33,237 nt of DNA from Gammaproteobacteria bacterium. Its GTDB lineage: Bacteria; Pseudomonadota; Gammaproteobacteria; Granulosicoccales; Granulosicoccaceae. Location of the stretch: assembly GCA_019634245.1 (NCBI GenBank), contig JAHQVR010000005.1, positions 1-33,237 on the forward strand, written 5' to 3'. Both the position numbers and the translations under genes were made by a program. Under the pieces are notes generated by a model that was not told the DNA's origin, made no database searches, and worked only from the letters and a program-made list of their open reading frames with translations. Positions 1 through 5,809 of the stretch are shown here, piece after piece (within the stretch, counting starts at the first letter, position 1; every line of letters begins with the position of its first letter).

Positions 1-2105
1 CCACAAAAAACGATATTGCCTTACTCGAGTTGGCGCAGCGAGCAACTCAACCGGCCATCGCCATGGATACTCGTACACCACAATTGCAAGATGATGCGTT
101 CATCGCAGGGTGGGGAACCGTTTCGATTGACGCCGAAGGCAACCCCACTGCCTATGCATCAACCCTTCAAGGTGTATATGTGGAACTAACACCAGGAGAC
201 GTTTGCGGCAGCTTGTATCCCGTTTATGCAGATAGTCTGGACGGCACACAGGTGTGCGTCGGTGTACCAGAAGGTGGAAAAGGCGCTTGTTTTGGAGATA
301 GCGGTGGCCCAGCTTATCGGGTGACGGATCAGAACACTATTGTCTTATCAGGCGCCACGAGTTTTGGAGCGCGTTGTGCAGCTGCTGAATCTCCGGGTGT
401 GTTTACCAATGTGTTCGCCTTCCAGGACTGGATACGCTCACATACGGGTGATCTAAACGCGCCTGTGGATCCTGTGACCGACGATGACCCCGGGCAATCA
501 TCGGGATCGGGCGCCACTTGGTGGCTGCTACCCGTATTGATGTTGCTAGCTGCGGCGCGCAAGTTCGGATCGCCAGCGCGCCGTCTTTTCATTCTGTTGC
601 TCGCCATCGCGGGTAGCGCACATGCGCAAACTGATGAAGTTGCTATCGTAGGGGGAGATGATCTTGATATCACTTACGTCCCTTCCATCGTCGCGTTATT
701 GGATGCCCGCGTGGTTGCGAGCACGGGTAACAATGCCGATGCTCAATTTTGTGGTGGTTCCATTATCGCCGATCGCTGGGTATTAACCGCGGCGCATTGT
801 GTTGATACTGACGGCGAAATATCAGCCCCAGAAGATATTTTGATTTGGATGGGTTCGAGTGTGATTAACAACAATCAAACCCCAGTGACTGTGGATCGCG
901 TAGTGGTACATCCGGAGTGGAATTCGTCTTTTGTGGTGAACGATTTAGCATTGTTAGAGCTAAGTTTTAGCGCCACACAACCCGCGGTAGCTTTGGATTT
1001 TCAACCTGCAACCAGCGTTGATCAGGGCTACATAGCTGGTTGGGGTGCCTTGGGTGTCGATGATGAGAATCGCGTGACATCCTATGGTGAAACACTGCAA
1101 GGAACCTATGTTCAATTGACACCTGGCAATGAGTGTCGAGAGCGCTTTCCGGACGTGCCTTTCGAACCGTTTGACGAAGATTTGTGTGCAGGTGGAGGTG
1201 TAAGTGAACTAGGTGCCTGTTTCGGTGACAGTGGTGGCCCAGCCTACCGAGTTACTGAAAATAATGGGTTGGTGTTAGCGGGTGTCGCCAGTTTTGTTAC
1301 CGGCAATTGTGGTCAGTTGGGTCGCCCAAGCGTTTATGCCAGTGTTTGGTCTTTTAAAGAGTGGATCGTCAGCATTGTTGGTACTGAGAATCTGGCTGTG
1401 TTGCCCACTAACCAACAGGCCAATAATGATGATGGCGAGGCGAACGGTGGTTCAGCGGGTGCGGGTGCAGCGTGGATGCTGCTACCCTTAATCGGACTCG
1501 TTGTGCTTCGTCGGCGCCAGTGGCGAACTGCTATGGCGGTCGGTGTTCTCGCCAGTTTATCGTCGGCGTGCTTTTCTGCCAAACCTATCAACAGTGCCGA
1601 TGTTCATTCAATACAAACGGAGAGCGACGTGACAGTGTCTTTGTTCGAACAACCCATTGGACTTTCAAAAACGGAAGTGCAAGAGGCTGCTGCCGACCTA
1701 TGGCAAAGCACGCCGAGTTGCGAAACTCAACGTACCGGAGTAGGCAAGCTACTGCGAGCGCACTTTCTTGAAAGTTGTGACTATCAGAATGCGTCACAAG
1801 AATCGGTGTGTGGTGCCGTACCGTTGAATGCACGTTATTATTTTCTAGCGGATAAACTGGTACAAGTCAGTTTTGTCTTTGCAAAGGCCACAGAGGGGTA
1901 TCGCGAGTGCGTGATCAACAACGGCTGGCAGCAGGGCTTTAAAGAAGTAACATTGGTAGATTCTGAATCTAATACCACATCTGGTGTACTGCGCTTGAGC
2001 GGATCCGATCCCAGCCTTGGAGTTGTGATAAGAGATGACGATTTAACTCACGTTGCCAATACGGAGTTGGTCGCTGAAATCCAAGCATTAAAAGGTGCGC
2101 TGTAG
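1..2105 (+). CDS. Tandem trypsin-fold protease polyprotein (5' end missing) with C-terminal lipoprotein-like domain
   Basis: Probable secreted serine endopeptidase(s) of the chymotrypsin fold (S1). The frame is already open at base 3, and its first codons give the catalytic Asp motif NDIALLEL (Asp at 12-14), so the TTG at base 30 is not the real start and the His lies upstream. Domain 1 ends after the Ser motif GDSGGP near 300. Domain 2 (about 640-1380) has all three triad motifs: TAAHC, NDLALLEL and GDSGGP. The two domains are close paralogues. The residue six before the active Ser (chymotrypsin position 189) is Gly in both, not Asp, so Arg/Lys specificity is not expected. After each protease lies a Gly/Ser-rich stretch, a hydrophobic segment, basic residues, then a second hydrophobic segment like a signal peptide. 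The final ~170 residues form an unrecognised Cys-containing domain. There is no stop codon anywhere between the units. The caspase-like gene starts 2 bases after the stop, so the two are probably coupled. The protease call is certain; the polyprotein reading is inference. Confidence 0.9.
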   Translation, partial: TKNDIALLELAQRATQPAIAMDTRTPQLQDDAFIAGWGTVSIDAEGNPTAYASTLQGVYVELTPGDVCGSLYPVYADSLDGTQVCVGVPEGGKGACFGDSGGPAYRVTDQNTIVLSGATSFGARCAAAESPGVFTNVFAFQDWIRSHTGDLNAPVDPVTDDDPGQSSGSGATWWLLPVLMLLAAARKFGSPARRLFILLLAIAGSAHAQTDEVAIVGGDDLDITYVPSIVALLDARVVASTGNNADAQFCGGSIIADRWVLTAAHCVDTDGEISAPEDILIWMGSSVINNNQTPVTVDRVVVHPEWNSSFVVNDLALLELSFSATQPAVALDFQPATSVDQGYIAGWGALGVDDENRVTSYGETLQGTYVQLTPGNECRERFPDVPFEPFDEDLCAGGGVSELGACFGDSGGPAYRVTENNGLVLAGVASFVTGNCGQLGRPSVYASVWSFKEWIVSIVGTENLAVLPTNQQANNDDGEANGGSAGAGAAWMLLPLIGLVVLRRRQWRTAMAVGVLASLSSACFSAKPINSADVHSIQTESDVTVSLFEQPIGLSKTEVQEAAADLWQSTPSCETQRTGVGKLLRAHFLESCDYQNASQESVCGAVPLNARYYFLADKLVQVSFVFAKATEGYRECVINNGWQQGFKEVTLVDSESNTTSGVLRLSGSDPSLGVVIRDDDLTHVANTELVAEIQALKGAL
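519..626 (+). other. Internal GlyGly-CTERM-like anchor plus signal-peptide hairpin (junction 1)
   Basis: Codons 519-557 encode a hydrophobic segment beginning WWLLPV, preceded by an SGSG stretch. Codons 558-584 encode a basic loop (RKFGSPARR). Codons 585-626 encode a second hydrophobic segment ending in AHA, a good signal peptidase I site before Gln at 627. By the positive-inside rule this is an out-in-out hairpin that leaves both protease domains in the periplasm. An in-frame ATG at 540 could start the second protease separately, but no clear Shine-Dalgarno precedes it. Confidence 0.6.
1470..1571 (+). other. Internal GlyGly-CTERM-like anchor plus second signal segment (junction 2)
   Basis: A Gly-rich stretch (NGGSAGAG) precedes the hydrophobic segment encoded by 1470-1508 (WMLLPLIGLVVL). 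A strongly basic loop RRRQWR follows (1509-1526), then a second hydrophobic segment (1527-1568) ending SLSSA before Cys at 1569-1571. That Cys could be a lipidation site, but the -3 residue is Ser instead of the usual Leu/Val/Ile, so signal peptidase I cleavage is also possible. An in-frame ATG at 1533 is a possible internal start without an evident ribosome binding site. Confidence 0.55.
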
Positions 2106-2107
2106 GC

Positions 2108-3934
2108 ATGCAAGGGAGAGTGGGTCGTCATCTGTTGGCGATCCTGTTCCTACTGGGGTCACTATCAACGCAGGCTTTGGCCGCCAAGCATGCATTGCTG
2201 ATTGGCGTCTCTGACTACCAAGATGAGCGCATCGATGATCTTGAAGGGCCGCGCAACGATGTTACGGCCCTTGAAGAAGTGTTGACCAACAAATGGGCCT
2301 TTGACAAAGATCGAATCACAACATTACTGGACGAGGACGCTACCGAAAGTAACATTCTTTCGGCCATCGATGAACTGTATCGTGCCAGCGCTCCTGGTGA
2401 TGATTTATTGATTTACTACTCCGGTCATGGCACGAGTGCTCAAGACTCTACGTTGGGCGCTAAACTTCATTTGCCTGATGGATCAGGGGCGTTGGTGTCA
2501 TATGATTTCGACCCTGAAGTGCACATCGCTCGTCTAGAACAAGATAAACCATTGACCGCCGAAGAAGACGGACTCATTGTCGGTCGTTTTGAACTTAAAC
2601 CGCGATTTGAAAAGCTGAATCAAGACCGACAATTGTTGGTGATCTTTGACGCCTGTTTTTCTGGTAATGCCGTCAGAGAAGCTTCGGGTCGATATGTCCC
2701 AACGAATAAGCGGCTATTGAGTTTCACTGAGATCAGCGATTGGCTTAGTGGAATCGTTAAGGCTGATGATGCAAACAACACAGCTGAGCCAAGTGAGAGC
2801 TTACAGCTTGAATCAGGCTGTGAAGAGTGTCTTGATGTGGAAATAGTTTCTGCAGAAGTCGCAGCTTTTGATTACGACAATCTGGTGTACTTCGGTGCAG
2901 CTGCGGAACACCAGCTAGCAGTGGATTTATCGCAATCGGAAATCGATGCCGGGTTGGTCTCTACCATCGATGGCAAACCACACGGTGGATTTACCGATGC
3001 GTTGCTGCGAGCTTTGTGGACGGTAGATGCAGAGGTGCCCGACACCGTCAGCTACGGTCAACTATTCAGTCAAGTACTCGATCAATTCCAAAGTCGTTGT
3101 AAGTCCTGCGGACATATTCCAATATCGCTGCCCGTACTCAGTAGCGATCGACATCAGCTGTTGAACAAGGCCGTGTTCTCCAGCGGGGTGCCTGCCTCGA
3201 ATTGGGCGGTAGCATCAGCCGCTCAAATACCTGAGATCCTAACGGAGCAGCTGAGTGTGGCCGTGGCCGCTGATGCGCCGACTCTGTTGGCACATATCAA
3301 GAACAATCCTGATGCACATGTAAACCAGAGCTCTCCAGATATTGTGGTCGAACCCTCCCCGACAGGTTATTTAGTGCGCTCCTCAGACGGCTCACGGTTA
3401 CGTCACTTTGAGTCTGAGCCGAGTCACAGAAGCTTTGACCGTTGGCTTGCAGCGCAACGATGGTTAAAAAATCGCCGTCATAGAGATCGAGTCCAACAAA
3501 AACCGTTATTGCATGCAGAATTTCGCCATCCGATCCTGGGTAACGTGGCCAGAACCGGTGAGCGTGTTTTTTTTACGATGGAATCGGATTCGGATATCAG
3601 TTTGCTGATGTTGTTGGTGGATGCGGATGGTGCTTTCCATATGCTCTATCCGGCGACTGAAGAAGAGGCCAGTCGTGTTTATAAAGCGCAACAATTGATT
3701 CGGTTTCCGGCGGATAACTCTGTACAATTTGTTGTCACTCCTCCCTGGGGTGCGGACAATGCCCTGTTCTATGGTGTACCGCCTGGGGATGCGGTGCTTG
3801 AACTGGCGCTGAATGTATCTCGAAAAGGCCCGGTGTCTGCCGATAGTTCGACGTTACAAGAGCTGGAGAAAGCGTTGGATGCGCTGCAATCCAATGGTAG
3901 CGTGTCACATATTCGATTCCTGTCCGTTGAATAG
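2108..3934 (+). CDS. Exported caspase-family (peptidase C14) protein with DUF4384-like C-terminus
   Basis: Predicted periplasmic or surface cysteine peptidase of the caspase/metacaspase fold. Residues 1-25 form a signal peptide (basic start, long Leu-rich core, ALA cleavage site). The caspase core follows: ALLIGVSDY opens the first strand, His107 sits in YYSGHGT and Cys183 in FDACFSG, so the catalytic dyad is intact. A region near residues 235-265 contains a CEEC cluster, and a CKSC pair lies near 335. Residues about 475-560 resemble DUF4384, a beta-rich domain often attached to exported caspase-like proteins (LLMLLVDADGAFHMLYP). The 608-residue length suits a caspase plus accessory domain. 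It starts 2 bases after the protease polyprotein and is followed by an anti-sigma/sigma pair. Metacaspase-type enzymes usually cut after Arg or Lys; the specificity here is not deducible. Family assignment is secure, role inferred. Confidence 0.9.
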   Translation: MQGRVGRHLLAILFLLGSLSTQALAAKHALLIGVSDYQDERIDDLEGPRNDVTALEEVLTNKWAFDKDRITTLLDEDATESNILSAIDELYRASAPGDDLLIYYSGHGTSAQDSTLGAKLHLPDGSGALVSYDFDPEVHIARLEQDKPLTAEEDGLIVGRFELKPRFEKLNQDRQLLVIFDACFSGNAVREASGRYVPTNKRLLSFTEISDWLSGIVKADDANNTAEPSESLQLESGCEECLDVEIVSAEVAAFDYDNLVYFGAAAEHQLAVDLSQSEIDAGLVSTIDGKPHGGFTDALLRALWTVDAEVPDTVSYGQLFSQVLDQFQSRCKSCGHIPISLPVLSSDRHQLLNKAVFSSGVPASNWAVASAAQIPEILTEQLSVAVAADAPTLLAHIKNNPDAHVNQSSPDIVVEPSPTGYLVRSSDGSRLRHFESEPSHRSFDRWLAAQRWLKNRRHRDRVQQKPLLHAEFRHPILGNVARTGERVFFTMESDSDISLLMLLVDADGAFHMLYPATEEEASRVYKAQQLIRFPADNSVQFVVTPPWGADNALFYGVPPGDAVLELALNVSRKGPVSADSSTLQELEKALDALQSNGSVSHIRFLSVE

Positions 3935-3967: not shown

Positions 3968-4942
3968 ATGAACAAGCCAGACTCATTAACCGACAATGAA
4001 GTGGCGTTTAGTGCCATTAATCTGTTTTGCAACAAGCCCATCGGCCCGGCACCGGACTGGCAGGAGCTAGAAGATTTTCGCGCCCATCGATTATCGAGCG
4101 AACGTATGGCTGAGATTCTCAGTCATGTGGCCAATGATCCTGAGCAATTCCAGCAGTGGCAAGATTTAAAAGACGCCAGCGATTGGGTAGCAATAGAGCA
4201 AGATGAAGAGTTAGCGAAGTCGGCTGAGTTAACAGCACCGTTGACAGATCTCCAGCAGGCTAAACAACGAAACAGCTCCCCTAGTGTCGGTCAGTGGTTA
4301 TCCGGCTTGTGGGACAGTGTTATGGGGCAACCTACCATGGCTTTCGGTGGCGCAGCGGCTGCTTTGGCTTTGGCCGTTTTGGTAGTGCCGAGTTTGTTAC
4401 GAAGTCCGGATGCGAGTTTGGATGAATTGCTCGAGACAACATTCGATACCTATATCGGCTCGGGAGTAACGCTGCCAGCGGAGACATTAGTACCCCGTGT
4501 GACCCGCAGTACAGGGCTTGTGATCGGTGAGCCGAGTACCGAAGAGGTTGCTAGACACCACTTGCAATTAGGTATGCAAAAAGCGTTTTTACGACTCAGC
4601 TCCAATCCAAATGACACCTGGAGTGACTGGGCAGAGGAGCTCCCTGTGGAGGCCATGGACTGCGCAACAACCTCCGAACCAGAGTCTTGCCAGGCAGCGG
4701 CTGATGATCATCTGTCATTGGGCAATTGGGCATTGATGAGCTACTTTGCCTGTAGTCAGGGGACAGTGGGCACCGGGGATGATTTTTGGCAATCTCAGCT
4801 GAAGATTTACCAGGGTTTCGAAGCTCGTACTTCCGTTACAGACAGCGCTATAGTAAATTCAGTGTTCGGTAGCCGATCTGCACCGGTATCCCAACAAGAA
4901 CTTTGCACCGCTGTCACTGAAATCATGAAAGCGGGGCTGTAA
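3968..4942 (+). CDS. Single-pass membrane protein, probable anti-sigma factor
   Basis: Probably the membrane-bound inhibitor of the sigma factor encoded directly downstream. Residues 1-122 are hydrophilic and cytoplasmic; residues 31-64 (starting DWQELEDFRAHRL) resemble the helical sigma-binding segment of anti-sigma proteins, which often reads DWEDLAAYxDGRL followed by a DP motif. The His-Cys zinc ligands of zinc-binding anti-sigmas are absent. Residues 123-144 form the only membrane span (Ala/Leu/Val-rich). The extracytoplasmic part, 145-324, has four cysteines (CATTSEPESC, FACSQG, LCTAV) that could form disulfides. It starts 33 bases after the caspase gene and ends 21 before the sigma gene. 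Topology is read from sequence; anti-sigma function rests on gene order and weak N-terminal likeness. Confidence 0.65.
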   Translation: MNKPDSLTDNEVAFSAINLFCNKPIGPAPDWQELEDFRAHRLSSERMAEILSHVANDPEQFQQWQDLKDASDWVAIEQDEELAKSAELTAPLTDLQQAKQRNSSPSVGQWLSGLWDSVMGQPTMAFGGAAAALALAVLVVPSLLRSPDASLDELLETTFDTYIGSGVTLPAETLVPRVTRSTGLVIGEPSTEEVARHHLQLGMQKAFLRLSSNPNDTWSDWAEELPVEAMDCATTSEPESCQAAADDHLSLGNWALMSYFACSQGTVGTGDDFWQSQLKIYQGFEARTSVTDSAIVNSVFGSRSAPVSQQELCTAVTEIMKAGL

Positions 4943-4963
4943 CTACAAGGCAACAGAATCCGC

Positions 4964-5809
4964 ATGGAATCGACGCTTGATGCCAAGACATCTGCGAAAA
5001 TCAAAGCCGAGCGTCTGACCCTAGTCTACTCAGACAGCTGGCAGTCTCGATTGCGTGGTTATGTGGGCCGCAAATACCACAATTTCGGCGATTGGGAAGG
5101 GTGGTTTGAAGAAGCCCATCAGAATCTCGCCATGAAAATAGATCGGTTACCGGCTGAAAAGCCGCTCACCGATGCACTGATTTTCGCTGTGTTTAAAAAT
5201 GAACTTATCTCGGTCAAACGCAACAAATTGGGCTATCCACGGCCCCGTCAGTGGTTGCGGGAATTCAGTGATTTGGGGCAGAACTTATTCGAATGGATGT
5301 GTTTGCAACGATTGACTCGCGGTGAAATCATCGGTCGAGCGGTTAAAGACTCTGAAAAATCTGAACACAATGCACTGGTTGAAAAATTGGTGGATATGAT
5401 GATCGAGAAAAAAGAGTGTGATGGCGTTCGACCAATGGCAGACAATGTTGATGATGAATCTGCAGAGCAACTGGTGGCTCATGATCCTTCTACTGAAGAA
5501 ACGGCAGATCGTATGGGCTTGAGTGCTGTTCTAACAATGCTACTCGGTGATGCCAATACCGCTGATGTGGAAGCTACTGCGTCATCGATTGTATTGGAGA
5601 TGCGATCAGCGCTGGAAGCCAATCCCATATTGAGTGACAGCGATATTTTCATTCTGCGTTGCTATTACTTTCAGGGGCTATCCCAAAACGAAATTGCCAA
5701 AGAACTGGATTTGCCGTTACACAAAGTGGTTCGCCAAAGAGAGGCAACCGTTAAGCGCTTGCGGGAATTTATGGAACGATTTGGCCTGGATAGGCAATCG
5801 CTATTATGA
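4964..5809 (+). CDS. RNA polymerase sigma-70 family factor (ECF-like)
   Basis: Directs RNA polymerase to a dedicated promoter set. The C-terminal 60 residues (about 218-275) are a sigma region 4 helix-turn-helix: LSDSDIFILRCYYFQGLSQ, then NEIAKELDLPLHKV and REATVKRLREF. Residues about 18-95 look like region 2: a tryptophan/acidic segment, then a helix with FAVFKNELISVKRN at the position of the usual LxxIARNLxxDxxR. The linker (about 120-215) is acidic and longer than in typical ECF factors, giving 281 residues against about 170-220. It lies between the anti-sigma-like gene and an exported protein whose ATG overlaps its stop (ATGA). Self-activation of this operon would be usual for such pairs, but the operon promoter lies outside the window. 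Confidence 0.8.
   Translation: MESTLDAKTSAKIKAERLTLVYSDSWQSRLRGYVGRKYHNFGDWEGWFEEAHQNLAMKIDRLPAEKPLTDALIFAVFKNELISVKRNKLGYPRPRQWLREFSDLGQNLFEWMCLQRLTRGEIIGRAVKDSEKSEHNALVEKLVDMMIEKKECDGVRPMADNVDDESAEQLVAHDPSTEETADRMGLSAVLTMLLGDANTADVEATASSIVLEMRSALEANPILSDSDIFILRCYYFQGLSQNEIAKELDLPLHKVVRQREATVKRLREFMERFGLDRQSLL

What the first reader, a model, noticed from the sequence alone, without database searches (positions are those of the whole stretch)
1..2105. Protease polyprotein joined through GlyGly-CTERM/signal-peptide hairpins
Two paralogous serine proteases and a third exported domain are encoded in one frame without a stop. Each junction has a Gly/Ser stretch, a C-terminal anchor-like segment, a basic loop and a fresh signal-peptide-like segment. 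Normally a GlyGly-CTERM (the rhombosortase sorting tag) ends the protein. Here two consecutive tags are internal, and the topology still puts every domain in the periplasm. A secreted polyprotein cut at both sides of each hairpin (rhombosortase-type protease and signal peptidase) would be a new arrangement. The alternative is separate genes that lost stop codons and start internally (ATG 540, ATG 1533).
Basis: partly seen in the sequence, partly recalled or inferred. Interest (0 to 1): 0.85.

Follow-up and report, generated by a model that had tools for sequence, protein, structure and literature searches.

The report
Exported protease polyprotein with internal signals
One bacterial gene encodes two secreted trypsin-like proteases and a third exported domain as a single chain, joined by pieces that look like an end-of-protein sorting tag followed by a fresh export signal; relatives are joined in a similar way, so it is probably a precursor that is cut apart after export.

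Summary
In detail: window 3-2105 (+, 5' end cut off) is one open frame of 700 aa encoding trypsin-trypsin-DUF with two stop-less junctions. It is not an artefact. P0002 (52% identical) has all three domains with both junctions stop-free, and 24 further proteins join one or two trypsins to the same C-terminal domain. One search for stand-alone copies of that domain gave two genuine ones, each with its own signal peptide. The first hydrophobic segment resembles GlyGly-CTERM: 11 of 19 internal junctions match TIGR03501, 3 above its cut-off (the window's are below), 0 of 10 shuffled. Measured loops are basic. Best reading: a Sec-exported polyprotein with an internal stop-transfer tag plus an internal lipoprotein (or type I) signal peptide, cut by signal peptidase, and perhaps by a rhomboid/rhombosortase. 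All cleavage is inferred. Host rhombosortase could not be tested; no genome is held. Three relatives have only one hydrophobic segment, which the two-cut model does not explain. New variant of a known kind.

The parts
3..446 (+). C-terminal part of first S1 protease domain (catalytic Asp and Ser present; N-terminus with signal peptide and His lies upstream of the window)
498..557 (+). Junction 1, segment 1: Gly/Ser motif (SSGSG, residues 166-170) and hydrophobic helix ATWWLLPVLMLLAAA (171-185), GlyGly-CTERM-like
   Evidence: TIGR03501 13.7 bits, cut-off 15.5
558..584 (+). Junction 1 basic loop RKFGSPARR (186-194)
585..626 (+). Junction 1, segment 2: signal-peptide-like LFILLLAIAGSAHA, possible signal peptidase I site AHA|Q (208/209)
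   Evidence: the AxA test over all such segments is not significant over shuffles
627..1367 (+). Second S1 protease domain; His265, Asp314, Ser410; IVGG at 215-218 without a preceding Arg
1446..1508 (+). Junction 2, segment 1: GGSAGA motif (482-487) and helix GAAWMLLPLIGLVVL (488-502), GlyGly-CTERM-like
   Evidence: TIGR03501 9.7 bits; MYXO-CTERM 22.8 bits, cut-off 20, but the shuffled peptide still gives 19.1
1509..1526 (+). Junction 2 basic loop RRRQWR (503-508), net charge +4
1527..1571 (+). Junction 2, segment 2: internal lipoprotein-type signal TAMAVGVLASLSSA|C, lipobox LSSAC, Cys523
   Evidence: the Cys column holds Cys in 14 of 23 full joined chains of alignment A4 (the window piece there was cut to begin at this Cys and is not counted)
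1569..2102 (+). Third domain (DUF, 178 aa), two Cys invariant in the alignment, no Pfam family; AlphaFold2 pLDDT 86.3
2103..2105 (+). Stop codon TAG of the polyprotein

Best explanation
A Sec-exported polyprotein precursor. The chain enters the periplasm by its N-terminal signal peptide. At each junction the GlyGly-CTERM-like helix stops transfer, the short basic loop stays in the cytoplasm, and the next hydrophobic segment re-starts export as an internal signal peptide. So all three domains end up outside the cytoplasm. The internal signals are then cut: junction 1 by signal peptidase I (AHA|Q), junction 2 by Lgt/LspA at the lipobox, releasing the DUF as a lipoprotein, probably bound for the outer membrane because Asp never follows the Cys in the 18 proteins that have it. 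The upstream GlyGly-CTERM-like helices are perhaps trimmed by a rhomboid (rhombosortase or GlpG), as for VesB of Vibrio cholerae. Shown: open frame, conservation, charge pattern, motif statistics. Inferred: topology, all cleavages, lipidation, destination.
For: Open frame. P0002 has all three domains with both junctions, 52% identity over 100%. 26 proteins in all, the window included, join trypsin to the DUF (P0001-P0013, P0020, P0036, P0040, P0046-48, P0053, P0085, P0086, P0098, P0102, P0106, P0109), in two branches whose DUFs are homologous (hhalign probability 98, E 1.6e-13; column-shuffled control 0.4). The 21 loops measured have net charge +2 to +9. Lipobox in the last second segment in 14 of 26 (16 of 26 if Cys is allowed at -4/-3) against 1 of 22 first segments; shuffles average 3.0 and 0 of 5000 reach 14. 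The residue after the lipobox-like Cys is never Asp, 0 of 18. TIGR03501 matches 11 of 19 internal junction peptides at E <= 10, 3 above cut-off, and 0 of 10 shuffles made from ten of the eleven matching ones. Two stand-alone DUF proteins begin with a signal peptide (by eye), so the DUF is an exported domain. VesB, a GlyGly-CTERM trypsin-type protease, is cut by RssP and, less efficiently, GlpG (PMC6219818, 12 passages; PMC11389362, abstract and sections 6-8).
Against: No cleavage is shown. P0085, P0086 and P0102 have a single hydrophobic segment that ends in a lipobox-like Cys, which cannot be both an N-out anchor and a signal peptide; P0106's first segment is broken by a Lys. The AxA sites of the type I-like segments are no better than shuffles (6 of 11, shuffle mean 5.6, 2692 of 5000 reach 6). 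The window's own GlyGly-CTERM scores are below the cut-off, P0002's two junctions do not match, and of six stand-alone trypsins of this family scanned whole only P0025 matches TIGR03501, at 8.5 bits, so even terminal tails here are poor members. In VesB, Ala at P1' or Ser at P1 leaves little activity, and the window's junctions lack a clean SGGS. Host rhombosortase untested. Members are related, so the lipobox count is not 26 independent events.
Confidence: 0.55

Rival explanations
1. Uncut membrane protein: the hairpins are plain transmembrane helical hairpins that tether two proteases and the DUF side by side on the periplasmic face; the lipobox and tag likeness are leftovers of the fused genes.
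For: Same topology without any processing enzyme; AxA sites not above shuffles; weak or no TIGR03501 scores in window and P0002.
Against: Leftover motifs should decay: the lipobox persists in two branches, the second of which is only 15-20% identical to the window's DUF in alignment A4, and is specific to the second segment (14 of 26 against 1 of 22).
Confidence: 0.25
2. In-frame nested genes: the DUF (and second protease) are made from internal starts, so the joined frame matters little.
For: ATG 540 and 1533 exist; two stand-alone DUF proteins start separately. The Shine-Dalgarno test does not exclude it: -4.9 and -1.9 kcal/mol at the internal ATGs against -2.3 to -3.9 at five ordinary starts here and a background median of -2.7.
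Against: Met in 2 of 21 loops; in the window the basic stretch RRRQWR lies upstream of ATG 1533; loops of up to 51 residues (P0011) stay open and in frame. GTG/TTG starts not excluded (no DNA held for the relatives).
Confidence: 0.08
3. Neutral gene fusion: neighbouring exported genes lost the stop between them, and the signals still work independently, with no added function of the joined form.
For: Stand-alone trypsins with hydrophobic, basic C-terminal tails (P0016, P0017, P0022, P0025, by eye) and stand-alone DUFs exist.
Against: The joined form is the majority found: 26 against 2, though by searches of different depth and length limits; stand-alones group with fused P0020 (support 0.99) and P0006 (0.80).
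Confidence: 0.1
4. Sequencing or assembly error that removed stops.
For: None found.
Against: 25 other proteins are joined without a stop, P0002 at both junctions.
Confidence: 0.02

Closest known systems
GlyGly-CTERM proteins / rhombosortase (VesB of Vibrio cholerae)
   Same: Trypsin-type protease, N-terminal signal peptide, Gly/Ser motif, hydrophobic helix, basic cluster.
   Different: There the tag is at the extreme C-terminus; Haft and Varghese report no TM helix between signal peptide and tag in 219 non-redundant sequences (PMC3237569: outline with abstract, sections 9 and 12 and one passage read). Here one or two tags are internal and a new export signal and domain follow.
Bacterial lipoproteins (Lgt/LspA substrates)
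   Same: Basic n-region, hydrophobic core, lipobox Cys, no Asp at +2 (rules recalled).
   Different: The signal is internal, 508 residues into the window's truncated chain.
Bradyrhizobium FbcH (cytochrome b/c1 precursor cut by signal peptidase at an internal signal; recalled, no call)
   Same: One precursor, internal export signal, cut in two.
   Different: No C-terminal sorting tag, no lipobox, not proteases. My two searches for it listed nothing on point.
E. coli YdcD double-wing domain (for the DUF)

Membership tests
Peptidase S1 (trypsin) | S1 fold with His/Asp/Ser triad | tested here: met
   PF00089 E 6.9e-62, two stretches; His265, Asp314, Ser410 in protease 2; protease 1's His lies outside the window
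GlyGly-CTERM (TIGR03501) | Motif + TM + basic cluster above the curated score | tested here: not met
   Window J1 13.7, J2 9.7 bits against 15.5. Relatives: 3 of 19 internal junctions above (the 19 include the window's two). A terminal tail of a Vibrio campbellii trypsin itself 13.2, so the cut-off is strict
GlyGly-CTERM (TIGR03501) | Located at the extreme C-terminus | tested here: not met
   Both copies are internal
GlyGly-CTERM (TIGR03501) | Rhombosortase in the same genome | not testable with these tools
   No genome held; two genome-contig scans found no relative
Lipoprotein signal peptide | Basic n-region, hydrophobic core, lipobox with Cys | tested here: met
   RRRQWR / TAMAVGVLASLSSA / C523
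Lipoprotein signal peptide | At the N-terminus of the precursor | tested here: not met
   Internal in the window and in the other 17 proteins with the Cys
YdcD family (NF050020) | Sequence score and fold of the family | tested here: inconclusive
   1 of 11 members matches at E 9.5e-4, cut-off not shown in that table; fold match weak

The most novel reading that the evidence does not exclude
A bacterial secreted polyprotein from which a membrane hairpin is excised: a rhomboid removes the internal GlyGly-CTERM-like helix and the protease's C-terminus is lipidated, while Lgt/LspA lipidates the N-terminus of the next domain, so one precursor yields differently lipid-anchored surface proteins in fixed ratio.
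Probability: 0.35. Interest if true: 0.88.

Novelty: new variant of a known kind. Interest (0 to 1): 0.7.

Why it matters
GlyGly-CTERM is defined as a C-terminal tag, and lipoprotein signals as N-terminal. A conserved family with both placed inside one chain would show that sorting signals can serve as excisable joints, a route to bacterial polyproteins. It also tests whether rhombosortases and LspA accept internal segments, and it gives a defined partner domain for secreted trypsins.

Tried and rejected
Genome context and rhombosortase: no whole genome is held; relatives need a handle; an E. coli locus is not accepted as centre and not held; both genome-contig scans found no relative (10 with P0001, 25 with A3), and A2 had no stretch conserved enough; viral contigs found none with A3, P0012 and P0047. 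AxA test of signal peptidase I sites: not above shuffles. Shine-Dalgarno test: uninformative. MYXO-CTERM match of J2 (22.8 bits): not taken as specific, because the shuffled J2 peptide scores 19.1 with the same model and 20.6, above cut-off, with TIGR03382. DUF fold: no Foldseek match at E <= 0.001, only the YdcD lead; Pfam and PHROGs none; PDB sequences only two RubisCO small subunits at E 1.2 and 1.8. AlphaFold2 of protease 2 + hairpin + DUF: both domains fold, linker and second segment below pLDDT 50, pTM 0.56, so no evidence on docking. Papers: ten searches; those on internal signals or bacterial polyproteins (35, 59, 63, 80: no paper; 60: 8 of 18 listed; 62: 2 listed) showed nothing on point, within that library only. 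Rows dropped: P0122 (trypsin start joined to the DUF with the middle missing) from the stand-alone count; a spurious P0102 loop. P0002's last loop was missed by the threshold there, the single-segment proteins have no loop, and the first junctions of P0001, P0002 and P0010 were outside that count. One search lists 120 of 1306 matches; those 120 were scripted and 41 sequences printed in full, so 26 is a lower bound.

Full report
What is there. Window bases 3-2105 are one open frame of 700 aa, cut off at its 5' end by the window. Pfam finds two trypsin domains, followed by a 178-aa domain without a Pfam family. Between the domains lie two junctions. Junction 1 is SSGSG-ATWWLLPVLMLLAAA-RKFGSPARR-LFILLLAIAGSAHA|Q. 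Junction 2 is NGGSAGA-GAAWMLLPLIGLVVL-RRRQWR-TAMAVGVLASLSSA|C. The catalytic triad of the second protease is present.

It is conserved. The protein search returned P0002, 832 aa, 52% identical over the full length, with a complete N-terminal signal peptide (by eye), both proteases, both junctions and the third domain. Scripting over the 120 listed hits and reading 41 of them gave 26 proteins, the window included, in which a trypsin (two trypsins in three cases: window, P0002, P0010) is joined without a stop to this domain. This is a lower bound: 1306 proteins matched and 120 were listed. The 26 fall into two branches. Profile comparison shows their third domains are homologous (probability 98, E 1.6e-13; shuffled control 0.4). 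The search for stand-alone copies of the third domain found three proteins. Two (P0121, P0123) are genuine and begin with a signal peptide; the third is a chimera. In a tree the stand-alones sit with fused proteins, P0121 with P0020 (0.99) and P0123 with P0006 (0.80). The two searches differ in depth and length limits, so 26 to 2 is not a frequency. Of the 26, only P0007 carries a name, a Granulosicoccus metagenome bin. The window's organism is unknown to me; its neighbouring genes look gammaproteobacterial by eye.

The first hydrophobic segment. The NCBIfam GlyGly-CTERM model matches 11 of 19 internal junction peptides at E <= 10, and 3 (P0012 18.9, P0085 15.7, P0036 19.3 bits) pass the curated cut-off of 15.5. 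The window's own score 13.7 and 9.7, and P0002's two do not match. Shuffled versions of ten of the eleven matching peptides give 0 of 10. Scanned as whole proteins, 2 of 14 joined proteins match. Terminal tails are no better: of six stand-alone trypsins of the family scanned whole only P0025 matches (8.5 bits whole; 13.0 as a peptide), and a Vibrio campbellii trypsin scores 13.2. So the likeness is real, but the window does not pass as a member. Published work on VesB shows that RssP cuts at SGGS and that single changes there, of one Leu and of one Pro of the helix disturb processing, although a mutant with all Leu changed behaved like wild type (PMC11389362, abstract and sections 6-8). The window's junctions do not match those rules cleanly.

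The second hydrophobic segment. The 21 loops measured carry net charge +2 to +9, as expected for a loop held in the cytoplasm. The last junction's second segment ends in a lipobox in 14 of 26 proteins by the strict pattern, 16 with Cys tolerated upstream; two more (P0085, P0086) have Arg at -4. The first segment has 1 of 22. Shuffled second segments average 3.0, and 0 of 5000 shuffles reach 14. A multiple alignment places the Cys in one column in 14 of 23 full joined chains, in both branches. The residue after it is Asp in 0 of 18, which by the E. coli Lol rule (recalled) means outer membrane. The eight proteins without a Cys there, and the three first junctions, look like type I signal peptides, but their AxA sites are not better than shuffles (6 of 11 against 5.6; controls 6 of 22 after the first segment, 13 of 21 in the proteins' own N-terminal signals).

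Mechanism. The best reading is an exported polyprotein with an internal stop-transfer tag and an internal signal peptide at each joint, cut by signal peptidase I or LspA and perhaps by a rhomboid. Shown: frame, conservation, charge pattern, lipobox enrichment. Inferred: topology, every cut, lipidation, destination, and that the third domain partners the proteases. The third domain is predicted with good confidence as helix-four strands-helix-four strands (pLDDT 86.3, pTM 0.80). Its nearest lead is the YdcD double-wing domain, which is weak. A model of protease 2 with hairpin and DUF says nothing on docking.

Against it. Three relatives (P0085, P0086, P0102) have one hydrophobic segment ending in the lipobox-like Cys, and P0106 has a degenerate first segment; the two-helix model does not cover them. 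Internal starts cannot be excluded for GTG/TTG codons, and the Shine-Dalgarno test does not decide. Rhombosortase in the host is untested. The family is related by descent, so counts overstate independence.

Novelty. Haft and Varghese describe GlyGly-CTERM at the extreme C-terminus with no TM helix between it and the signal peptide (PMC3237569, outline with abstract, sections 9 and 12 and one passage); the words internal, fusion and polyprotein do not occur in that text. Of the 2026 paper on the GlyGly-CTERM (PMC13393428) I saw the abstract and outline only. Searches listed no paper on an internal tag or a bacterial polyprotein of this kind (titles and abstract starts; no paper in 35, 59, 63, 80), within that library only. 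A cut precursor with an internal signal is known in principle (FbcH, recalled). I rate this a new variant of a known kind.

Noticed in passing
window 2108-3934, next to 3-2105: A caspase-like protease (PF00656 E 1.1e-17 plus DUF4384; GHG and D.C.SG motifs; signal peptide by eye) starts 2 bases after the polyprotein's stop. Trypsin, caspase and DUF4384 domains occur in one protein in P0059, P0071, P0077 and P0078, and trypsin and caspase genes are annotated under one match on several Rhizobium plasmids: a recurrent pairing.
   Followed up: partly
window 3-2105 and P0002: All four protease domains of the window and P0002 lack Asp189 (Gly or Ser instead), and the three visible activation sites lack the Arg before IVGG-like motifs. 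The 25 domains of the 24 other joined proteins keep both. Specificity and activation site seem to have changed together.
   Followed up: partly
window 3968-5809: Behind the caspase gene lie a protein without Pfam match (one hydrophobic stretch, anti-sigma-like by eye) and a sigma-70 region 4 protein (PF04545 E 2.5e-6), suggesting a self-regulated operon.
   Followed up: no
P0085, P0086, P0102: Single hydrophobic segment with Gly motif in front and lipobox-like Cys behind: tag and lipoprotein signal seem merged. P0085 passes the GlyGly-CTERM cut-off (15.7 bits), the other two do not match. Topology unexplained.
   Followed up: partly
P0122: Start of the trypsin joined directly to the third domain, the middle missing: deletion or assembly error.
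   Followed up: no
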